Assembly (NCBI GenBank): GCA_903828145.1
Contig: CAIKKY010000019.1
Coordinates: 124,001-188,000, forward strand
DNA length: 64,000 nucleotides
DNA from: an uncultured Hyphomicrobiales bacterium
GTDB taxonomy: Bacteria > Pseudomonadota > Alphaproteobacteria > Rhizobiales > Devosiaceae
Direction of reading: 5' to 3'
Below the pieces are notes generated by a model. The model did no database searches, was not told where the DNA came from, and saw nothing but the letters and a program-made list of their open reading frames with translations. Position numbers and translations under genes: made by a program. Each line of letters begins with the position of its first letter. The stretch's first letter is position 1. Below are positions 4,176-15,375 of the stretch, piece by piece.

Positions 4176-4751
4176 ATGCCCCTTGCCTCAACGGCGCTCA
4201 GCTTTGACGGCCATGCCATTATTTCGGCTGATGGCATGATTGCCGATGCCGAGGGCCTGATCCCGGACGCCCTGCGGGTTGAGGCCGACTTCAAGCGCTT
4301 TCAGGCAGCGCTCGATGACGCCGTGCTGGTGGTCATGGGGCGCGAGGGGCACAAGAAGCACCCCAACCCGGGCCGCAGACGGCTGGTGTTCACCGCGCAG
4401 GTCGCAGCGCTCGAGCCTGATCCGTCGGACAGCCATGCCTATTTCTATAACCCGGACGGCCTGTCGCTTGCGGCCATGCTGGCCGAGCTGGGGCTGACGT
4501 CCGGTACGGTGGCCGTGACCGGCGGCACCCGCGTGTTTGATTTCTTCCTGCCCTATTATGACCGGTTCCTGCTCTCGGAAGTGCGGACCTTCACCCTGCC
4601 GACCGGCCGTCCGGCCTTTTCTGGCGGGCATCCCCGCTTTGTCCTCGCGGGCGCAGGCTTTTCGCCGACCGACATGGAGACCATCGCACCGGGGGTGGTG
4701 TCGACGCTCTGGGTCAAGGGTCGCCCGGCGGGGCTTGCCGGCGTTTGTTGA
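4176..4751 (+). CDS. Dihydrofolate reductase / RibD C-terminal-like protein, substrate unknown
   Basis: 191 residues. Segments such as [26 protein letters not shown] and [23 protein letters not shown] resemble the DHFR/RibD-C reductase fold, where a Gly-Gly motif binds the nucleotide. I use the ATG at 4176 because GGAG at 4165-4168 is 7 nt upstream; the GTG at 4170 is only one base from that site. The canonical folA residues are not all evident, so reduction of dihydrofolate itself should not be assumed. It diverges from pxpB and runs into moaA 38 nt later, suggesting co-transcription with moaA. Confidence 0.75.
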
Positions 4752-4789
4752 GTGGCCCCCGGCCCGCGTTTTTGGTAAAAGCCCGCCGT

Positions 4790-5821
4790 ATGGATCAGCC
4801 TCACTCCCCCAGCGCCCTGCCCCCCACAGCCCGCCCGCTGATCGACAGCTTTGGACGGCAGATCAGCTATGTGCGGATTTCGGTCACGGACCGATGCGAT
4901 TACCGCTGCGTCTACTGCATGGGCGAAGACATGCAGTTCCTGCCGAAAAAAGAGGTGCTGAGCTACGCCGAAATCGACGCGATTGCGGCCGCTTTCATCG
5001 CCCGGGGGACAACGCGCATCCGGCTGACCGGCGGTGAGCCGCTCGTCAGGCGCGACATTCTCACGCTGGTTGAAGCGTTAGGGCGACGGATCGGTCATGG
5101 GCTTAAGGAACTGACCCTCACCACCAATGGCAGCCAGTTGTCGCGGCTCGCGCCGGGCCTGTTCGCGGCCGGGGTGCGGCGGATCAATGTGTCCCTTGAT
5201 TCGCTTGATGCCGAGCGCTTTGCCGCCATTACCCGGCGCGGACGGCTGACCGATGTGCTTGAGGGCATGGAGGCCGCCCGGGACGCCGGGCTTCAGGTCA
5301 AAATCAACATGGTGCCCCTGCGCGGCATCAATGATGATGAAATCGAGGCCATGCTGGCCTTCGCCCACGCCCGGGGAATGGACCTGACGCTGATCGAGGG
5401 CATGCCGCTTGGCGATGTGGCGCTCGATCGCGCCGAAGCGCACCTGCCGCTTCGCGCCGTGCGCGACGCGCTGGCTACCCGCTACCACCTGACCCCGATC
5501 CCGACGATGACCGGCGGTCCCGCCCGCTATGTGCGGGTTGAAGAGACCGGTGGGCGGCTCGGCTTCATCACCCCGCTGACCCATAATTTCTGCGAAAGCT
5601 GCAACCGGGTGCGGCTCACCGCCTCCGGGCAGCTCTATCTCTGTCTCGGGCAGGAGGACAGCGTGAACCTGCGCGACGCGTGGCGCGACGGCGGGGCCGA
5701 TGCCCTTGACCGGGCGCTGGACCACGCCATGCGGATCAAGCCCAAGGGGCATGATTTCGTGCTCGGGCGCGCCCATGCCGCCCCGGCGGTCGAGCGCCAC
5801 ATGTCGGTGACGGGCGGGTAA
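4790..5821 (+). CDS. moaA: GTP 3',8-cyclase MoaA (molybdenum cofactor synthesis)
   Basis: 343 residues. It is a radical-SAM enzyme that makes 3',8-cyclo-7,8-dihydro-GTP, the first step to molybdopterin. The SAM-cluster cysteines are Cys36, Cys40 and Cys43 (CDYRCVYC). The C-terminal second Fe-S cluster uses Cys268, Cys271 and Cys285, with the family spacing. TGGEP follows the first cluster, and the protein ends in the Gly-Gly tail that MoaA needs for activity. The start is the ATG at 4790; the frame extends 15 codons further but without family similarity. moaC and moeA lie about 33 kb away behind trpC, so the Moco genes are split. Confidence 0.97.
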
Positions 5822-6090
5822 GCGACGCCGCCATCAGGGCGCGCTCGGACACGGTAAAATCCTGCCACGCACCGGGCGTGCCTGACGTAACGGCGCTCAG
5901 CGTGACATCGGCATAGGTGGTGTTTCGATAAGCAAACCGCATGACCATGTGGTCGCCCAGCGCCTGCTCTATGCCCGCACTCAGCGTCAACCCGATCAGA
6001 CTGGTTTCCGTGGTCACACTCTGCGGCTCTGAGGCCCCAAAATCGGTAAATGTGCCGGTTAAAGCGGCCGGAGTCGGGGTATGATGAGCG
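5820..6090 (-). pseudogene. Fragment resembling the C-terminal strands of an outer-membrane beta-barrel protein
   Basis: The 275 nt between moaA and the methyltransferase carry a minus-strand frame reading about 85 residues, with alternating-strand segments such as LTLSAGIEQALGDHMVMRF and AYRNTTYADVTL. The pattern resembles the last hairpins of small Opa/OmpA-like porins (sentence form: TLGAGVEYALTDNLSLRAEYRYT in many porins, given here only as a loose analogy). There is no start codon with a ribosome site, no signal peptide and no proper barrel terminus. The frame runs on into the antisense of moaA. I read it as decayed remains; it could be chance. Confidence 0.3.
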
Positions 6091-6096
6091 ATCCCG

Positions 6097-6861
6097 TCAA
6101 ACAGCCTCGAACACCGCGAAATAGTAGCGCCGACTTCCGTTAAGCCAGGTTTCGTAGCGCCTGGTCCCTTTCAGCGACAGCGTTTCGCGGAAACGAGCGC
6201 GAAAATAGGACGGCACTTTACGGTGAAAGAGGTCGCGTTGCGGCTCGCCGTCCACGATTGAGCGGCGGGCATCGGCCGTCTGGTCCACCATCCCCACCAG
6301 CCGCAATCCGCTGGCGGCAGCCTTGGCGGTTATGTCGTGCCGGATGTCGTCGAGCGCCCCAAGCGCAAATTCGGCTGAGATCAGACGTCCGCCAGTTTTG
6401 AGGACGCGGCGAATCTCCGCCAGCGCAGTCTCGGGATTTTCAAAGATAAACAGCGATTCGATGGAGAAAACGCTGTCGAAGGCTTCGCTATCAAAGGGCA
6501 ACTTCTGACTGCGACCATGGCGGGCGTCGGCGCCGGAAAGGCGGGCAAAAATACAGGCGGCGCGTGACAGGTCCAGCCCGATGAACCGTATGCCAGGATT
6601 CGCCCTGGCCAGTCGTGTCAGTCCAATCCCCTGCCCGCAGCCAATTTCAAGCACGTCGAGCGGAGAAACGCCGCCTCCGGATGCAATCGCATAGGCCCAA
6701 AGTTGATCATAAACCGAGATGCACCAGTGTTGCAGATCTGCCCATTGGTAGGGACGATTTCGCGTTTCCGTCTTTGAAAGAAGGCCTACATTCACGATCC
6801 TGAGCCCGCGAAGCCTCCCCCAGACATGGATCAGTTCGTAGCGCAGTTCAGGCGAAATCAC
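6097..6861 (-). CDS. Class I SAM-dependent methyltransferase, substrate unknown
   Basis: 254 residues. Motif I of the Rossmann methyltransferase fold is at residues 69-80 (DVLEIGCGQGIG). Motif II carries the acidic residue in FIGLDLS, and the post-motif region ALAEIRRVLKTGGRLI matches the Methyltransf_11 family. The N-terminal 60 residues contain aromatic helices, and the C-terminal third is Arg-rich and aromatic (RRYETWLNGSRRYYF). Codon use is visibly less GC-biased than in its neighbours. It is isolated: a 198-nt gap upstream shows no recognisable feature. The substrate cannot be told from the sequence; small-molecule or lipid methylation is possible. Confidence 0.85.
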   Translation of the reverse strand: MISPELRYELIHVWGRLRGLRIVNVGLLSKTETRNRPYQWADLQHWCISVYDQLWAYAIASGGGVSPLDVLEIGCGQGIGLTRLARANPGIRFIGLDLSRAACIFARLSGADARHGRSQKLPFDSEAFDSVFSIESLFIFENPETALAEIRRVLKTGGRLISAEFALGALDDIRHDITAKAAASGLRLVGMVDQTADARRSIVDGEPQRDLFHRKVPSYFRARFRETLSLKGTRRYETWLNGSRRYYFAVFEAV

Positions 6862-7059
6862 GTGATGGCTTTCTAACGGGGCGACCGGAATTGAGGGACC
6901 AGCAATCGGTCACAGTCCCATACAAGACGAGGCACAATCAGTGCAACGCCAGCGACAACGGGCAGCCTGGCTCCTCTGCATGGAGGGGGCGCTGACCGAT
7001 TAGGCACTGCGGGACGGTAGTTCCGGCGCGATGCGCTGCCCTGCCGACCACAGGCGCAC

Positions 7060-8274
7060 TCAGCTGCCGGGCTGAGCCCTGAGGTGTCGACCAGCGAGGA
7101 GCAGCGCCCCGAGCGATAGCGCGGCAAACACGGCGCCCATGGTAAAGGTCAGGCTCGACCCGGCCCCATCCCACAGCGCCCCCGCCACAAGGCTGGCGAG
7201 CAGCATGGCGATGCCGCTGACGAGGTTGAACAGGCCATAGGCCGTGCCGCGCAACTCGGCCGGGGCACTATCGGCGATCATGGCGGCGAACAGACCCTGC
7301 GTCAGCCCCATATGCAGCCCCCAGAGGGCAATGCCGAGCCCGAGGCCGACAAGGCCCGGCAGCACGCCGAGCGCCAGGTCTGCGAGTATGAGCACGATCA
7401 TGCCGAGCCCCAGAAGCTGGGTGCGCTCCATCCTGTCCGACAGGGCCCCCGCCGGATAGGCCGACAGCGCATAGACGACATTCATCACCACAAGCACCAG
7501 TGGCACGAGGGCCATCGGTGTGCCGAGTTCGGCGGCTCGAAGGGTGAGGAAGGCCTCCGAAAAGCGTGCGAGCGTGAACAGCGCTGCAATGGCCACCACC
7601 AGCCAATAGGTCCGCCCCAGCCGCCGCAATTCACTGAGGCCAAGCGGCATTTTGACCACACGCTGCCCGTCGGGGCGCTGCGGTTCTTTTACCGCAAACA
7701 CAATGAGCAGGAACGAGAGGAAGGCCGGGATCACCGCCACCCAGAAGACCAGCTGCACCGACCCCCAAACCGCCATCAACCCCACCGCAACAAACGGGCC
7801 GACAAAGGCGCCCACCGTATCGAGCGCCTGCCGAAGCCCGAAACTGGCGCCCCGGTGCGCTGGCGGCGCGAGATCGGCCACCAGAGCATCGCGCGGGGCG
7901 CCGCGTATGCCCTTGCCCACCCGATCAATGAACCGCGCCGCAATCACCGCCGCAAGGCTGGTGGCGAGCGGAAACACCGGCTTGGTGAAAGCGGCGAGCC
8001 CGTAGCCGAGCGCGGCGAGCGCCTTGCGGCGGCCGAGCCAATCCGACAGCGCGCCGGAGAAAATCTTGGTGATCGACGCGGTCGCTTCGGCAATGCCTTC
8101 AATCACCCCCACGGTCAGCGCCGATGCGCCGAAGGCGGTGACGAGGTAGATCGGCAAAAGCGCGTGGATCATTTCAGACGAGATATCCATGAGCATGGAC
8201 ACAAAGCCCAAAACCCACACAGTGCGCGGTATGGTGCCGAGTAGCGACAGGGGGCGCTTTTGATCCTCAGCCAT
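7060..8274 (-). CDS. MFS transporter
   Basis: 404 residues with about twelve hydrophobic segments. The first-loop motif of the major facilitator superfamily is present (SDWLGRRKALAALGYGL), and a second copy occurs at the start of the second half (SDRMERTQLLGLGM). RFIDRVGKGIRGAPRDALV is a conserved feature of a bacterial MFS subgroup of unknown substrate. I start at the ATG at 8274, with GAGG 9 nt upstream; the TTG seven codons earlier lacks a site. The gene diverges from the LysE-type exporter across 138 nt. Substrate is unknown; drug or metabolite efflux is a guess. Confidence 0.88.
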   Translation of the reverse strand: MAEDQKRPLSLLGTIPRTVWVLGFVSMLMDISSEMIHALLPIYLVTAFGASALTVGVIEGIAEATASITKIFSGALSDWLGRRKALAALGYGLAAFTKPVFPLATSLAAVIAARFIDRVGKGIRGAPRDALVADLAPPAHRGASFGLRQALDTVGAFVGPFVAVGLMAVWGSVQLVFWVAVIPAFLSFLLIVFAVKEPQRPDGQRVVKMPLGLSELRRLGRTYWLVVAIAALFTLARFSEAFLTLRAAELGTPMALVPLVLVVMNVVYALSAYPAGALSDRMERTQLLGLGMIVLILADLALGVLPGLVGLGLGIALWGLHMGLTQGLFAAMIADSAPAELRGTAYGLFNLVSGIAMLLASLVAGALWDGAGSSLTFTMGAVFAALSLGALLLAGRHLRAQPGS

Positions 8275-8412
8275 GGTCTGGCCCTCGCCTTGCAATCTCC
8301 TGTCCTAGCCCAAGCCAGGCGGCGCTGAAAGGGCGGGGTCACGCCCCGCGCTCAACGCTCTTTCCACCCTCAGCCGGCCCCGCTAGAAGACGGCAGCGTT
8401 TTGGGGACTGAT

Positions 8413-9024
8413 ATGAGCCTGTTGCTGACCGTGGCCCTCGTGCAGATGCTGGCCGTTGTCAGCCCCGGCCCCAGTTTTCTGATCACGGCCCGCATGGCCG
8501 TGGCGCGCTCGCGGCTTGATGGTGTGAAGGTCGCGCTCGGGCTCGGCGCGGGCACGGTGCTGTGGTCGACGGCGGCCGTATTGGGCCTCCACACGATTTT
8601 CGCGCAGGTGCCGTGGCTCTATCTCGCGATGAAACTCGGCGGGGCGCTGTTTCTGATCTATATCGCCATTGAAATCCTGCGGCACGCACAGGCCCCGCTG
8701 GATCTCGCCGATGCCGCCGCTGTCACCGCGCGGCCGTTCACCACCGGGTTCCTCACGCAGATCACCAACCCTAAGGTGGTGGTGTTTTTCGGATCGATCT
8801 TCATTGCCCTCCTCCCCGCCGAGGTGCCGCTGTGGCTCAGCCTCAGCCTGATTGCGCTCGTGAGTTTCAATGAGGTCTGGTGGTATTCGGCGGTGGCGGT
8901 GTTTTTCTCGATCCCCGCCGTGCGGCAGCGCTATATCGCCCTTAAGGCGCTCATTGACCGGATTGTGGGGGTGTTTCTCGCGGCCCTCGCGCTCAAGCTG
9001 ATTTGGGATGCACTGGTGACGTGA
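8413..9024 (+). CDS. LysE/RhtB family amino-acid exporter
   Basis: 203 residues, typical of LysE/RhtB exporters, with five to six membrane segments. The N-terminal signature is VSPGPSFLITARMAVARSR, and the conserved central QITNPKVVVFFGSI is present. These inner-membrane proteins export amino acids such as homoserine, threonine or lysine; the specific substrate cannot be read from the sequence. The ATG at 8413 is preceded by GGGG at 8403-8406; an upstream in-frame TTG at 8401 is rejected. The tRNA-Ser gene follows 44 nt later. Confidence 0.9.
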   Translation: MSLLLTVALVQMLAVVSPGPSFLITARMAVARSRLDGVKVALGLGAGTVLWSTAAVLGLHTIFAQVPWLYLAMKLGGALFLIYIAIEILRHAQAPLDLADAAAVTARPFTTGFLTQITNPKVVVFFGSIFIALLPAEVPLWLSLSLIALVSFNEVWWYSAVAVFFSIPAVRQRYIALKALIDRIVGVFLAALALKLIWDALVT

Positions 9025-9068: not shown

Positions 9069-9158
9069 GGGCAGGTGGCAGAGCGGTTGATTGCTCCGGT
9101 CTTGAAAACCGGCGAACGTGCAAGCGTTCCGGGGGTTCGAATCCCTCCCTGCCCGCCA
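9069..9158 (+). tRNA. tRNA-Ser (anticodon UGA)
   Basis: 90 nt including an encoded CCA at 9156-9158. The acceptor arms 9069-9075 (GGGCAGG) and 9148-9154 (CCTGCCC) pair perfectly. The anticodon loop CTTGAAA sits on a CCGGT/ACCGG stem and reads UCA codons. A long variable arm, as class II serine tRNAs have, lies before the T arm, whose loop TTCGAAT is at 9136-9142. It stands directly upstream of the polysaccharide genes; tRNA genes are common integration sites, but no integrase or repeated 3' end was seen here. Confidence 0.97.
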
Positions 9159-9249: not shown

Positions 9250-9282
9250 TAGTCCCGTACCTTGTGCGGGAGTCGGTCAGCT

Positions 9283-10053
9283 TTGGGCGCGCGGAACCAG
9301 TGGGTGGACTTTGAAACGGTGACGCTTGGCGGGCACCGCATTGCGGCGGCCTCGCGGGCCGACCTCGCTGCGGCCATGGCCGCCGACTGCCGGGGCGCCC
9401 GCACGGGGGCCAATTGGCCTCGGCTGGTGTTTGATGTGAATGGCCAGGGCGTCTCGCTTTACCACAGCGATCCGGTCTATCGCGCTGCGGTGGATGCGGC
9501 TGATCTCATTCATGCCGATGGCGGATTTCTGGTGGGGCTCTCGCGCTTTGGGCGCGGCCGCCGCCTGCCCGAGCGGACCGCCACCACCGATCTTATTCAC
9601 GATTGCGCCCGCGTTGCCGAAGCCGAAGGACTGCGCTTTTACCTGTTGGGCGGCGAGGAAGACGTGAACGCCGGCGCCGCGCGCGAGTTGCAGCGGCTTT
9701 ATCCGCGCCTCGTCATTGCCGGCCGCCGCCACGGCTTTTTCTCGCCCGATGACGAGCTGGAGATCATTGCCGAGATCAACCGGACCAAGGCCGATGTGCT
9801 GTTTGTGGGCCTCGGCAAGCCAAAAGAACAGGTGTTCAGCATCAAGTGGCGGCCGCTGTTGACCTGCGGATGGATTGTGACCTGCGGGGGCTGTTACAAC
9901 TACATCACCGGTGCCTATGCGCGCGCGCCCCAGCTGATGCAGCGGCTTGGCTTTGAATGGCTGTTCCGCGCCTTCACCAGCCGCCGCCTGTTCTGGCGCT
10001 ACCTGACCACCAACCCGCACGCGCTCTGGGTGACGTTGCGGGGGCTCTTGTGA
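9283..10053 (+). CDS. WecG/TagA/CpsF family glycosyltransferase
   Basis: About 256 residues matching the GT26 (WecG/TagA/CpsF) family. Signatures are VDFETVTLGGHRI near the start, the conserved Asp region IHADGGFLV, TATTDLIHD, and FVGLGKPKEQVF towards the end. Such enzymes transfer ManNAc(A)-type or other sugars to a lipid-linked acceptor on the inner face of the membrane. The start is uncertain: TTG at 9283 has GGGAG at 9268-9272; TTG at 9262 and GTG at 9304 are alternatives. It overlaps the flippase gene by 4 nt (GTGA), so it is coupled to the locus. Confidence 0.9.
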   Translation: MGARNQWVDFETVTLGGHRIAAASRADLAAAMAADCRGARTGANWPRLVFDVNGQGVSLYHSDPVYRAAVDAADLIHADGGFLVGLSRFGRGRRLPERTATTDLIHDCARVAEAEGLRFYLLGGEEDVNAGAARELQRLYPRLVIAGRRHGFFSPDDELEIIAEINRTKADVLFVGLGKPKEQVFSIKWRPLLTCGWIVTCGGCYNYITGAYARAPQLMQRLGFEWLFRAFTSRRLFWRYLTTNPHALWVTLRGLL

Positions 10054-11312
10054 CGGATCAGGCCGTGCGGGGGCGACATCTGGTTACCCAGGGCATTGCC
10101 ACGGCGGGGCCCGTTCTGGTGTCCGTGGCCCATCTTTCAGCCCAACTCGTTTTGATGCATCGGCTTTCGCCCAATGATTTCGGCGTTCTTGCGCTGGTTC
10201 TGGTGGCTGTTCAGCTGGGCTTCGGCGTGTCCAATGCGCTGTTGGGTACACCTTTTACTGTAACGTCCAACCGGACGGATGCGCCTCAGCGTCTTACCTC
10301 TGTGTTCGTGACACTGAATTTGGGTTTCTCTCTCGTCTGCGGGGCCGCAGTGGCGCTACTGGCCATAGTCCTCAGCAGCGTCTGGGTTGGTCTCGGCTTC
10401 GGCCTGTTCACGGCGTTGACCCAGTTGCGCTGGTTTGGGCGCAGCTATGCCTATGCGCTGCATCGGCCCCAGGATGCGGCGATCAGCGATTTTGCCTATG
10501 CCTTGGCGTTTGGGGCGGCGCTTGCAGTCCTCCTGACAACAGAGGCCACGCTGGTTGCCGTGTCCAGCATGTTCACCCTCGCGGCGCTTGCCGGTCTCTT
10601 GGGTCAACCCCGGTTTGCCCACCTATGCCTCATGGTGCGCTCGAGCGGCCTATCCGACTACCGCGCCATCTGGCGTGACCAATCGCGCTGGACCTTGACC
10701 GGGGTGATCAGTACCGAATTGACGGCCAATGCGCATTCCTGGCTGGTCGGGCTGATTGCCGGTCCGGCCGCGCTCGCCCCCATCGCGGCAGCAGCCCTGC
10801 TTTTCCGTCCTGTGATGCTCGTAGCAACCTCGTTGACGCAATTGGAGCGGCCAATTCTCACCCGAGCTCTCGTCGCGGGAAACGAAACTCTGGCGCAGAG
10901 CCATGTCCGGCTTTTCCGCAGTGTGCTGGCTGTGGCCCTGCTCGTGACGATTGCGGGGGGCGCGGTGATCCTGCTTGTCCAGCCGCACCTACTTATTCCC
11001 GACACCTACGCGCTGGCTGATGCGCGGCTGGCGTTCGTGTTGATCGGGTCAAGCGTCGCACTCTCCGTGCTTCGCACCCCAGACAGCGTGGTGTTGCAGG
11101 CGATGGGGCAATTTCGATCCCTCGCCCTGGCCAGCGTGACATCGGGGGTGGTGGCCCTGGCCGTTGCGGTGGTGGCGCTGTTCAGCTTGGCGCCGGTGTT
11201 CTCCATCATCGGGCCGGTTGCCGGGCAAGTGGTTCTGGGCACGCTGATCGCCAGCACAGCAAAGCGGGCCTGGGCAAACGCAAAAAAGGACGAGCCATGT
11301 CAAAAGTCGTGA
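10050..11312 (+). CDS. Wzx-like polysaccharide flippase / MATE-fold membrane protein
   Basis: 420 residues, almost entirely hydrophobic, with about twelve predicted helices. The overall shape and the stretch LSPNDFGVLALVLVAVQLG match the oligosaccharide flippase superfamily (MVF/PST), which moves lipid-linked sugars across the inner membrane. Translation starts at the GTG at 10050, overlapping the stop of the preceding gene; the frame is open 31 codons earlier but inside that gene. The 3' end overlaps the next glycosyltransferase by 16 nt. Family assignment rests on topology and context more than on exact motifs. Confidence 0.78.
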   Translation: MTDQAVRGRHLVTQGIATAGPVLVSVAHLSAQLVLMHRLSPNDFGVLALVLVAVQLGFGVSNALLGTPFTVTSNRTDAPQRLTSVFVTLNLGFSLVCGAAVALLAIVLSSVWVGLGFGLFTALTQLRWFGRSYAYALHRPQDAAISDFAYALAFGAALAVLLTTEATLVAVSSMFTLAALAGLLGQPRFAHLCLMVRSSGLSDYRAIWRDQSRWTLTGVISTELTANAHSWLVGLIAGPAALAPIAAAALLFRPVMLVATSLTQLERPILTRALVAGNETLAQSHVRLFRSVLAVALLVTIAGGAVILLVQPHLLIPDTYALADARLAFVLIGSSVALSVLRTPDSVVLQAMGQFRSLALASVTSGVVALAVAVVALFSLAPVFSIIGPVAGQVVLGTLIASTAKRAWANAKKDEPCQKS

Positions 11313-12214
11313 TCTGCATCCCCACTTTTCGCCGGCCGGAAATGCTGAAGCAAACATTGGACGCCTTGGCGCTTATGGTGTGTTCGCATTCAGTGGCACT
11401 TCTGGTTGGAGACAACGATACTGAAGGGCAACAAGGCGTAGCGCTTGTTGCAAGTCTTTCAGAAAGCTATCGATTCCCCATTAAGTGCATGGTCATCGAA
11501 CGGCGCGGACATCCGGCAGCGCGGAATGGTCTTTTGATCGCCGCCCTGGCCCGCGACCCGGATTTCATTGTCTTTCTGGACGATGATCAAATCGTCGACC
11601 CTAACTATTTGGAGGCGTTAGTAGATACAGCCGAGCGCGACAGTTCCGATCTCGTTGGCCCCGCGGTGTGGCCACAATTTGAGGAACCTGCGCCGCAATG
11701 GGTTCGAGAGTGTAAGATCTACCGTCGCGACACGGACAGCAATGGCCCTGTACCGATTTTAACTGGTGACGGCGGAATTCTCGTGCGGCCAGCCTGCTTA
11801 GCGCTCCTTAAGGGGCGCTACTATGACGAATCTTTCGGACTTAGCGGGGGGGCAGACACAGAGCTATTTCAACGCCTTAAGGAGGTAGGCGCAACCTTTT
11901 CTCGTTGCAGCGAAGCTAAGGTTCTCGAAGTCTATCCCCTAAGCAGGCTAACGGTCCGGTGGGCCATATCTCGTGCATACAGGCTTGGGAATACCGCGTT
12001 TCGGTTACGCCGCATTGCGGGCTCGCCGCTAGACATCATTGACTACGCCAAGATACCGGCGGGCATAGCCAAGGCAGCTCTTGACCTAGTTTTCAACCTC
12101 GCCCGACCTCACAAGCAGGTGGACGCCTTATGCATGGCAGCGCGCGCTATGGGTAAGCTCGCATTCATGCTTGGCTCGGTGCACGAAGACTATAGGCGAA
12201 CACATGGTCGGTGA
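11297..12214 (+). CDS. Glycosyltransferase family 2 (ExoM-like)
   Basis: 305 residues. A GT-A fold begins at residue 3 (VVICIPTFRRPEMLKQTL). The metal/UDP-binding acidic motif is IVFLDDDQIVDP at about residues 95-105, and the acceptor region GDGGILVRP precedes GGADTELFQRL. The arrangement resembles ExoM-type transferases of succinoglycan synthesis. The C-terminal part carries hydrophobic helices that may touch the membrane. The sugar and acceptor are not deducible. It overlaps the flippase by 16 nt and the ligase gene by 11 nt. The base composition begins to fall in this gene. Confidence 0.9.
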   Translation: MSKVVICIPTFRRPEMLKQTLDALALMVCSHSVALLVGDNDTEGQQGVALVASLSESYRFPIKCMVIERRGHPAARNGLLIAALARDPDFIVFLDDDQIVDPNYLEALVDTAERDSSDLVGPAVWPQFEEPAPQWVRECKIYRRDTDSNGPVPILTGDGGILVRPACLALLKGRYYDESFGLSGGADTELFQRLKEVGATFSRCSEAKVLEVYPLSRLTVRWAISRAYRLGNTAFRLRRIAGSPLDIIDYAKIPAGIAKAALDLVFNLARPHKQVDALCMAARAMGKLAFMLGSVHEDYRRTHGR

Positions 12215-13497
12215 CGTTGCCAGCTTTGACACAAAGTCCAAGGTGCGTTCGGGATGGGGATTTGACGAGTTCATGCTCGCCCTGTTTCTCATCATGGTAC
12301 TTGTAGGCTTTGAACCTTTTCGACCGCGCGACCCAGCTAGTATTGCGATCCAATCTGCGAGCAACGGGGATTTCGTGAGGCAGATTTCCTTTTTAGGGAC
12401 ATTTGTCCTCATTGTCCTACGCACAGCGTCCGCAACGGGACTTTCCGGGTTGTTGAGTATCCCAAAAACGCTTTTCGCTTTGCTCGCCTGGGTCCTGTTA
12501 AGCACACTATGGTCGTTGACTCCTGACGCAACCCTTCGTCGTGCTATTTTACTGTGCACAGTTACGCTTCCCCCGTTTCTATTTGTCCAAATCCTCGGAC
12601 CGAGCCGAATGTGGTCGGTATTGGGACGTGTATGCGCTGCACTAGTCGTTGCTGACTTGACTGCCGTTGCGCTTGTCCCAGCAGCTACTCACCTACCGTC
12701 CGATGCAGAGCAACTAATTGTTGGTTCGTGGCGTGGCTTGCACTTCCATAAGAATGATGTAGGACCGCTTGCAGCTTTGATCGCACTTTATTTCGGTTTC
12801 GAATTCATTGAAAAAAAGAAGTTGGGTTATCTTATAATAACTATTTCTTCTATAACTCTATTGATCGGATCAAGATCAAAGTCTGCAATCGGTTTTACTT
12901 TAATTACAGTGTCGATATCTTATTTTTTTGTCGATATATTTAAAATCTATAAATACAAAAAGAAAATTAATATCAATGGTAGTGATTTCTTTACTATTTT
13001 CTATATCCTTCATTTCACTTATTTTCCCATTTTTATTCGAGATACTGTCAGATCGAGATTCTATATCCGGGCGAGGAGCAATTTGGAGGGTCGCATTTAC
13101 ATATATAACCGACCACCCCTGGCTGGGCGCCGGATACACTGCATTCTGGAGATCCGGTCCAGAATCGCCAATACGACTAATAGCTACAAGCTGGGAAGTC
13201 TTTGCGGCGCATTCTCATAACGGCTACATTGAGTCTGTACTGGGATTAGGCATACTAGGAATAGTACTGGTATTATTTTCTCTATTCATAATTCCATTTT
13301 ACGCAATAATTAAGTCAGAATTTTCCTTTAGGGGAAGAATACTATTATCATGGATTGTTTTTCATTTCCTTCAGAACCTGATCGAAGCCGAAATTTTGCA
13401 GCGTCAAAACGAAAGTTGGGCGATGCACGCCGTCGCGCTAGCATTGATTTTTCATCGACCAGTCACCTCTCAAATTCGGACTACTGGCAATGACTGA
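12204..13497 (+). pseudogene. O-antigen ligase / polymerase (WaaL/Wzy family), split by a frameshift
   Basis: Reading from the ATG at 12204, the protein shows successive membrane segments and the ligase-family motif LHFHKNDVGPLAA. The first frame stays open only to 13220, but after about residue 250 it loses sense. The continuation lies in the +1 frame: LISMVVISLLFSI, then GRGAIWRVAFTYITDHPWLG and HSHNGYIESVLGLG, ending at 13497. The shift lies between 12904 and about 12975, which contains T7 at 12923-12929 and A5 at 12957-12961. The merged protein would be about 430 residues. This is a broken gene, an assembly error, or a slippage-corrected gene. The stretch is extremely AT-rich (11 G+C in 12901-12960). 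Confidence 0.85.
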
Positions 13498-14407
13498 TCC
13501 GTTTTTTACCGTCGTTATTCCCGTGTTCAACCGCGCTACGAGCATTGCGCCAACCCTCCGCTCGGTGGCGGGGCAATCGTTCAATAGCTTTGAATGTATT
13601 GTGGTCGATGACGGCTCTTCTGACGACAAGGACCTTCGGAGCGTTGTACAAAATCTCGGCGATACTCGTTTTCGATACATAAGACGTGAGAATGGCGGAG
13701 GCAGTGCGGCCAGGAACACTGGAATCGATGCAGCAATAGGAGGACATATTGCTTTCCTGGACAGCGATGATCTTTTTATGCCCGAGAAGCTTGCGTATTT
13801 TGCAGCGTATTTAAAGAAGAGTGGCGTACCGGCGGCCTATTCTCGCGCCTATGTCGATCGCGGCGTAAACCGCAAGTGGATTCGTCCCAGCCGAGGTATC
13901 GGTGCCACGGAGCCTGTTAGTGAGTATCTATTTTGCGCTAATGAGTTCATGCAAACGTCGACACTGGTTGTACGGCGCGACATTGCCGCAAGAGTGCGCT
14001 TCGACGAGACCCTCCGTAAGTTTCAGGACTATGATTTCTGCTTGAGGCTTGAGGCGGACGAAGGTGTAAAGCCGGTCTTACTGGATGAGCCGCTGGTGAT
14101 TTGGTCGGATCAGTCCGATGCCAACCGCACTTCGAAGCAGAGAGGTCTTGAGGACACGGACCGTTGGATCGCCAAATCGGGACGACTTTTCACGGCAAAG
14201 GCCGCTGCAGGATTCCGGGCAACTGCATATGCTTATCTACTATCGCCAAAAGCTCCCCTAGTAGCTCTTTGGTATATCGGGGTGGCTCTGCTGACGCGTT
14301 CAGTTCCGGTTCGGGTCGGGACCAGGCAACTTTTGCGTTGCTTCCTACCTCGAAAGTTTTATCGCCGACTCGCTAATGCGCTAGTGACAAGGCTTGGCCA
14401 TCCCTAA
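13490..14407 (+). CDS. Glycosyltransferase family 2
   Basis: 305 residues. The GT2 core is FFTVVIPVFNRATSI, then the nucleotide-binding VVDDGSSDD and the DXD-type IAFLDSDDLFMPE. The acceptor-side signature FQDYDFCLRLEADEG with its conserved Asp pair is present near residue 185. It would add one sugar to the lipid-linked repeat assembled by this locus. The ATG at 13490 overlaps the end of the frameshifted ligase by 8 nt. Its stop (TAA) overlaps the stop of the convergent quinone oxidoreductase by 4 nt, so the locus ends abruptly against a housekeeping gene. Confidence 0.9.
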   Translation: MTDPFFTVVIPVFNRATSIAPTLRSVAGQSFNSFECIVVDDGSSDDKDLRSVVQNLGDTRFRYIRRENGGGSAARNTGIDAAIGGHIAFLDSDDLFMPEKLAYFAAYLKKSGVPAAYSRAYVDRGVNRKWIRPSRGIGATEPVSEYLFCANEFMQTSTLVVRRDIAARVRFDETLRKFQDYDFCLRLEADEGVKPVLLDEPLVIWSDQSDANRTSKQRGLEDTDRWIAKSGRLFTAKAAAGFRATAYAYLLSPKAPLVALWYIGVALLTRSVPVRVGTRQLLRCFLPRKFYRRLANALVTRLGHP

Positions 14408-15375
14408 ACCAGCAGCACCCCTGCCCCGGTCGTCTCCCGGGCTTCGAGGCCGCGGTGGGCTTCGGCGGCGGCTTCGAGGGGGTAGCGGTGGCCGATCGGC
14501 ACACTCAGCGTGCCGGAGGCGATGGCTGCAAACAGCGCGGCGGCGGCGGTGCGCAGGGCTTCGGGCGTGCCGAGATAGGCAGCCGAGGTGGGCCGGGTGA
14601 GATAGAGCGAGCCTTTTTCCGCCAGAACCATGAGGCGCGGTATGCTGACCGGCCCGGAGGCATTGCCGAAGCTGACCATCAGCCCGCGCGGGCGGAGGCA
14701 ATCGAGTGAGCCCTCGAAGGTTGATTGCCCTACACCATCATAGACCACATCCACCCCCCGGCCGTTGGTGGCTGCGCGCACGGCGTCAACAAAGCCGCCC
14801 GCGCGGTAGTCGATCATCAGGTCAGCGCCCGCCGCGCGGCCGAGGGCAACTTTTTCTGGCCCGCCAGCCGTGCCGATCACACGGGCGCCGAGCGCTTTGG
14901 CCCATTGTACCAGCAGGTGCCCCGTTCCGCCGGCGGCGGCGTGGATCAACACCGTATCGCCGGGCTTGATCCGGTGGGTTTCATGCAGCAGGTACCAGGC
15001 CGTTGTGCCCTTGAGGAGCGCTGCGGCAGCAGTCTCATCGGCAATGCTATCGGGCACGGGCACCACCCGGGCGGCCGGCAGAAGGCGTTCGTCGGCATAG
15101 GCGCCCACCGGGCCCTGATAGGCCACACGCTGGCCGAGGTGAAACCCAGTCACCTCGGGGCCCAGCGCGGTAATGGTGCCCATGCCCTCGTTGCCCGCCA
15201 CAAAGGGCAGCGGCACGGGGTAGAGGCCGCTGCGCTGATAGGTATCGACAAAGTTGATGCCGATAGCGTGGTTCTTCACCCGGATTTCACCGGGGCCGGG
15301 CGCACCGACCGCGACGGTTTCAAGCGTGAGGACCTCGGGGCCGCCATGAGCCCGGACAAGAATGGCTCGGGTCAT
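14404..15375 (-). CDS. qor: NADPH:quinone oxidoreductase (zinc-independent MDR family)
   Basis: 323 residues. It shows the quinone oxidoreductase pattern of the medium-chain dehydrogenase family: VGAPGPGEIRVKNHAIGIN, FVDTYQRSGLYPVPLPF and the NADPH-binding AAAGGTGHLLVQWAKALGA. The zinc-ligand cysteines of alcohol dehydrogenases are missing, as expected for Qor. It reduces quinones by one or two electrons in the cytosol. It lies 15 nt downstream of terC on the same strand, so both are probably one transcript. Confidence 0.92.
   Translation of the reverse strand: MTRAILVRAHGGPEVLTLETVAVGAPGPGEIRVKNHAIGINFVDTYQRSGLYPVPLPFVAGNEGMGTITALGPEVTGFHLGQRVAYQGPVGAYADERLLPAARVVPVPDSIADETAAAALLKGTTAWYLLHETHRIKPGDTVLIHAAAGGTGHLLVQWAKALGARVIGTAGGPEKVALGRAAGADLMIDYRAGGFVDAVRAATNGRGVDVVYDGVGQSTFEGSLDCLRPRGLMVSFGNASGPVSIPRLMVLAEKGSLYLTRPTSAAYLGTPEALRTAAAALFAAIASGTLSVPIGHRYPLEAAAEAHRGLEARETTGAGVLLV

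What the first reader, a model, noticed from the sequence alone, without database searches (positions are those of the whole stretch)
12204..13497. O-antigen ligase/polymerase gene broken by a frameshift at a homopolymer
The ligase-family segments before and after 12904-12975 lie in different frames. The region holds T7 (12923-12929) and A5 (12957-12961). Removing one base in either run joins the segments. If real, the cell makes short or unligated polysaccharide, or uses transcriptional slippage to switch the surface polymer on and off.
Basis: partly seen in the sequence, partly recalled or inferred. Interest (0 to 1): 0.72.

Follow-up and report, generated by a model that had tools for sequence, protein, structure and literature searches.

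The report
Frame-broken sugar-chain polymerase gene (wzy)
A gene for joining surface sugar units is split between two reading frames in this one genome, most likely an ordinary recent loss of the gene (or one sequencing slip) and not a switch.

Summary
One Wzy_C-family gene (12204-13497) is spread over two frames: frame A is open from 12204 to the stop at 13218-13220, frame B from 12904 to the stop at 13495-13497. Both parts match one profile of relatives, at 156.5 and 109.0 bits, up to 267.8 read through. Of 43 distinct homologous loci examined, 40 have both halves in one frame and 3 are partial at contig ends; two of those three, in one genome, look like halves of another interrupted gene. 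Homology places the frame change only within about 12908-12977, so neither run is shown to be the cause; runs of this size are expected in DNA this AT-rich. In 445.6 kb of this assembly 8 of 177 same-strand junctions were flagged; on inspection only this one was a broken gene. That speaks against systematic errors, not against a single one. The gene lies in a five-gene polysaccharide cassette not found in the matching stretches of four genus relatives; more likely a Wzy polymerase than a ligase. Inactivating homopolymer indels in wzy are known (PMC10714927). Nothing found supports slippage or switching. Ordinary; low interest.

The parts
12204..13220 (+). Upstream part of the wzy-like gene, read in frame A to the first in-frame stop; the part homologous to relatives ends at about 12908-12977, the rest is out-of-frame tail
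12904..13497 (+). Downstream part of the same gene in frame B (Wzy_C domain, PF04932), open from 12904 to the stop at 13495-13497
12908..12977 (+). Interval in which the reading frame of the gene changes; not resolved further; contains the T7 and A5 runs
   Evidence: (profile scores within 4.5 bits of the best)
9262..10053 (+). WecG/TagA/CpsF-family glycosyltransferase, first gene of the cassette
9957..11312 (+). Membrane protein, weak match to polysaccharide flippases (PF13440, below its cut-off); true start probably later than the first possible one
11297..12214 (+). GT2 glycosyltransferase; overlaps the start of the broken gene
13490..14407 (+). GT2 glycosyltransferase; its start overlaps the end of frame B (ATG at 13490, stop 13495-13497)

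Best explanation
A wzy-type polysaccharide polymerase gene, probably acquired by transfer and fourth in a five-gene cassette, has lost its reading frame by a small indel between about 12908 and 12977 and is now a recent loss-of-function allele. Ribosomes starting at 12204 would make the first half, run on out of frame and stop at 13220, without most of the Wzy_C domain and its conserved HSHNGY.E motif; they would also not reach the natural end that overlaps the next gene's start (inference). The sugar unit made by the cassette would then not be polymerised by this protein. A likely route is strand slippage in replication in AT-rich DNA, possibly under selection by phages that use the polymer as receptor (inference from the P. 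aeruginosa precedent). Shown: the two-frame split, one-frame relatives, the cassette and its patchy presence. Inferred: loss of function, recent origin, transfer, cause.
For: The two parts match one family profile at 156.5 and 109.0 bits, up to 267.8 read through; scanned apart they cover profile positions 37-261 and 257-438 of 457. They align to consecutive columns of two relatives and to consecutive residues 346-565 and 566-744 of a Sphingomonas gei ORF (I had cut the upstream query at residue 239). 40 of 43 distinct homologous loci have both halves in one frame (24, 16 more). Frame B otherwise stays open for its whole length, so any decay is recent. GC falls to 0.41-0.43 over the gene against 0.63 in the sample of this genome, and nothing in the fetched stretches of four genus relatives matches the cassette at E 1e-3. 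Other frame breaks are rare in this assembly: 8 of 177 junctions flagged, the 7 others ordinary on inspection. [quoted passage not shown]
Against: No second strain of this species was available, so the break has been seen once. No reads or transcripts. The composition model put the change of frame later (frame A to 13043, frame B from 13075) than homology does. The sensitivity of the 445.6-kb control was not measured. No selection test was possible, as the closest homologues are about 35-37% identical over the downstream part.
Confidence: 0.62

Rival explanations
1. Assembly or sequencing error: the real gene has one continuous frame and is ordinary.
For: Seen in one assembly only; AT-rich stretch with several A/T runs; 40 of 43 homologous loci are in one frame; the rest of the gene is fully open.
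Against: Among 177 same-strand junctions in 445.6 kb of this genome no other broken gene was found, and 17 runs of 7 nt in coding segments (two of them in this cassette, one of these in this very gene) lie at no flagged junction. A single error cannot be excluded.
Confidence: 0.26
2. Expression across the break: transcriptional slippage or ribosomal frameshifting on the T7 or A5 run makes some full-length protein, perhaps as a tunable or phase-variable switch.
For: A run of seven T lies inside the interval of the frame change. Slippage that rescues an interrupted bacterial gene is known (PMC4256274, abstract). A paper title in a listing says that non-programmed transcriptional frameshifting is common and depends on the polymerase type (PMC6260861, listing only).
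Against: The run is shorter than the 11 A of tssM, the 9 A of Thermus dnaX and the 8-10 A of insertion sequences (PMC1088944, passages). No other locus examined shows this two-frame split. No stable RNA structure just downstream. Runs of this size are expected by composition.
Confidence: 0.08
3. Two-piece protein: the downstream part is started on its own (possible starts at 12928 TTG and 12976 ATG) and pairs in the membrane with the upstream part.
For: Both parts keep long open hydrophobic stretches (reading); in-frame start codons exist.
Against: No good ribosome-binding site is visible before either start (reading); none of the 40 one-frame loci is split this way; frame A runs on for about 240 nt into the downstream part.
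Confidence: 0.04

Closest known systems
Wzy_C / O-antigen ligase-polymerase superfamily (PF04932), probably a Wzy polymerase
   Same: Frame B matches PF04932 at 56.5 bits against a cut-off of 31.7; it keeps the GAGY..FW and HSHNGY.E motifs shared with relatives; cassette context with glycosyltransferases.
   Different: The gene is not in one frame in this genome.
Ligase/polymerase of solved entries 7TPG/7TPJ ('putative cell surface polysaccharide polymerase/ligase'; a WaaL ligase as I recall, not from a call)
   Same: Only solved relative found: E 8e-7 for the downstream part, 1.8e-11 for the profile of A1.
   Different: Distant; the gene context here does not suggest a core-LPS ligase.
wzy loss-of-function frameshifts of phage-resistant P. 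aeruginosa PAO1 (PMC10714927)
   Same: wzy gene inactivated by a small indel, often in homopolymers (passages).
   Different: There the mutants were selected in the laboratory and tested; here the cause and the exact site are unknown.
Transcriptional slippage rescue of an interrupted gene (C. rodentium tssM, PMC4256274)
   Same: An interrupted gene with a homopolymer near the break.
   Different: tssM has a run of 11 A and was shown by experiment (abstract); here the longest run is 7 and nothing was shown.

Membership tests
Wzy_C superfamily (PF04932) | Match above the Pfam gathering score | tested here: met
   56.5 bits against 31.7 for the downstream part; 58.4 bits in the genome search
Wzy_C superfamily (PF04932) | One continuous reading frame through both halves | tested here: not met
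   Two frames
Wzy polymerase (as against WaaL ligase) | Lies with other genes of a Wzx/Wzy-type pathway | tested here: inconclusive
   WecG/TagA/CpsF transferase and two GT2, and a flippase match below its cut-off; Wzz/Wzc-like gene beside the G012 homologue; sequence alone does not separate Wzy from WaaL
Wzy polymerase (as against WaaL ligase) | Polymerises repeat units | not testable with these tools
   needs polysaccharide analysis
Programmed slippage or frameshift gene | Same break kept in relatives | tested here: not met
   40 of 43 distinct loci have both halves in one frame; the 3 others are partial at contig ends and show no two-frame split
Programmed slippage or frameshift gene | Run of about 8-9 or more A/T, or another known stimulator | tested here: not met
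   longest A/T runs in 12780-13480 are 7 nt; fold z -0.55
Phase-variable gene | Run length varies between cells or strains | not testable with these tools
   one genome of the species, no reads

The most novel reading that the evidence does not exclude
The T7 run is a contingency site: a small share of full-length polymerase is made by slippage, or the run length flips in the population, so that one of eight Wzy_C systems of this genome is switched on and off.
Probability: 0.06. Interest if true: 0.4.

Novelty: new member of a known kind. Interest (0 to 1): 0.12.

Why it matters
If the break is real, it is one more example of a polysaccharide cassette losing its polymerase, a change that in other bacteria alters surface sugars and phage sensitivity. 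It would not change any general picture. If it is an artefact, the gene should simply be annotated as a normal wzy.

Tried and rejected
Pinning the frame change to a particular run: rejected, the profile score is flat over about 70 nt. Finding a near-identical copy elsewhere to read the runs: nothing closer than about 35-37% identity in 19 genus genomes, 61 relatives, 397 order genomes and genome contigs (4 loci); none in viral contigs; on plasmids 5 weak protein matches, the highest 39% over a third of the query, and no DNA match. Programmed frameshift: no shared break, no RNA structure. Family searches of TonB receptors and RND pumps as a check of assembly quality gave too few long genes to be useful (one TonB receptor and one full-length RND pump, both uninterrupted, and two weak RND matches below the cut-off). 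Literature: no paper held 'transcriptional slippage', 'O-antigen' and 'wzy' together; 20 held 'wzy', 'frameshift' and 'homopolymer' (listing of 15 seen, one read in passages); one held 'O-antigen polymerase', 'frameshift', 'phase variation' and 'homopolymeric' (listing only); 36 held 'transcriptional slippage', 'homopolymeric', 'frameshift' and 'bacteri' (listing of 12; one read in passages, two as abstract and outline).

Full report
Observation. Frame A from the ATG at 12204 is open to the stop at 13218-13220. Frame B has stops up to 12901-12903, then is open to the stop at 13495-13497. The T7 and A5 runs are at the stated positions. 0 of 2000 Markov sequences of the same composition stay open over 591 nt in a given frame. 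So a long coding stretch really continues in a different frame.

One gene, two frames. Frame B has a Wzy_C match (PF04932, 3.6e-15, profile positions 34-149 of 149); frame A has no Pfam match over a cut-off. Frame A does match relatives: as a query (239 aa, 12204-12920) it finds, in several genomes, the same genes as the frame-B query, for example G012 (602469-603014, then 603138-603563, one open frame of 455 aa) and G059 (one open frame of 474 aa). A profile of 11 of the 24 homologues extracted gives 156.5 bits for frame A alone, 109.0 for frame B alone and up to 267.8 read through. Scanned apart, the two parts cover profile positions 37-261 and 257-438 of 457. In alignment A1 they fall on consecutive columns of both relatives.

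Where the frame changes. The read-through score is within 4.5 bits of its best at every switch point from 12908 to 12977. The composition model kept frame A until 13043 and took up frame B at 13075, which disagrees; I give more weight to homology, since that model is coarse in AT-rich DNA. A/T runs of this size are expected in a 37% GC segment.

Relatives. One search extracted 24 loci: all are closed ORFs of 411-770 aa, 7 of them the other Wzy_C genes of this genome (one search lists eight in all). Searches took the 19 further distinct loci: 16 (L007, L041-L043, L064-L075) have both halves in one frame by profile; 3 are partial. Of these, L008 (294 aa) runs to a contig end. L009 and the second gene of L024, both from genome G043, carry profile positions 219-439 and 37-215, with stop codons on both sides and a contig end close by. 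They look like the two halves of one gene interrupted at about position 215-219, perhaps by a repeat at which the assembly breaks (inference, not followed further). So one more interrupted member exists, at another place and not as a two-frame overlap. In the search tables, 25 of 25 non-self matches among 61 genomes and 13 of 13 at 1e-15 among 397 genomes of the order have no stop inside the matched stretch. No close copy was found in the collections searched, so run lengths could not be compared.

Assembly error or real. I scanned 445,608 bases of this genome (the window plus 381,608 bases in 20 stretches) with a simple codon-usage model: 8 of 177 same-strand junctions looked like frame breaks. 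One is this gene. The other seven, inspected by their ORFs, are ordinary neighbouring genes or spurious short segments. Of 37 runs of 7 or more bases in the same DNA, 17 lie in coding segments (two of them in this cassette, at 11846 and 12811) and none of the 17 is at a flagged junction; the T7 in question was labelled non-coding only because it sits at a segment edge. So errors at runs are not systematic, but one error is possible. The sensitivity of the scan was not measured.

Setting. The gene is the fourth of five overlapping genes, 9262-14407: WecG/TagA/CpsF transferase, weakly flippase-like membrane protein, GT2, this gene, GT2. GC falls to 0.41-0.43 across most of the gene (sample average 0.627). 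In the stretches fetched from four genus relatives no ORF of 90 aa or more matches the cassette at E 1e-3. G011 and G016 match on both flanks, G015 and G012 only on the right flank, so absence at exactly this place is shown for the first two. G059, another family of the order, has a one-frame counterpart between two GT2 genes that match the window's (29.8% and 38.9% identity), with a WecG-like gene (47.8%) nearby. The G012 homologue, at a different place in that genome, stands next to a Wzz/Wzc-like gene. This favours a Wzy polymerase, but sequence alone does not settle polymerase against ligase; the one solved relative is named 'polysaccharide polymerase/ligase'.

Mechanism. Most likely the cassette was acquired, and its polymerase gene later lost its frame. 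Translation from 12204 would end at 13220 without most of the Wzy_C domain. Whether the phenotype changes is unknown, since seven other family members are in open frames. In P. aeruginosa PAO1, wzy loss-of-function mutations that give phage resistance are mainly single-base indels in homopolymers (PMC10714927, passages), so this is a known kind of event.

Slippage or switching. The bacterial cases I saw used longer runs: 11 A in tssM (PMC4256274, abstract), 9 A in Thermus dnaX and 8-10 A in insertion sequences (PMC1088944, passages). One abstract says that T7 RNA polymerase, in contrast to the E. coli enzyme, slips on runs as short as 3 A or 4 T (PMC6149199); a title in a listing calls non-programmed transcriptional frameshifting common (PMC6260861, listing only), which counts mildly for this rival. 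No shared break and no downstream structure (z -0.55) were found. I give this 0.08.

Verdict. Confirmed as a sequence feature, ordinary in kind; interest 0.12.

Noticed in passing
window 9069-9158 and 14404-15375: In three of four genus relatives (L048, L052, L060) tRNA-Ser(TGA) follows the quinone-oxidoreductase-like gene by about 30 nt on the same strand; here the cassette lies between them and the tRNA is in the opposite orientation.
   Followed up: partly
window 4745-9024: MoaA, methyltransferase, MFS and LysE-type genes have no counterpart between the DHFR-like gene and the oxidoreductase of L048 and L060, where these two lie about 0.7-1.6 kb apart (only weak LysE-like matches, 37 and 35 bits, in L050 and L056). 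The whole 4.75-14.4 kb looks inserted or rearranged.
   Followed up: partly
G043: L009 and L024: Two partial Wzy_C-family ORFs at contig ends carry complementary halves (profile 219-439 and 37-215) with stops at the break: possibly one gene interrupted by a repeat element.
   Followed up: partly
G000 (whole genome): Eight Wzy_C genes in a 2.95-Mb genome that is the smallest of the 19 genus genomes listed.
   Followed up: no
window 11846 and 12811: Two more 7-nt runs (G7, A7) in the cassette lie inside open frames without a break.
   Followed up: no
L040:6201-8510: The Sphingomonas gei homologue is a 770-aa ORF with Wzy_C at 538-684; the extra N-terminal stretch may only reflect a start called too early.
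   Followed up: no
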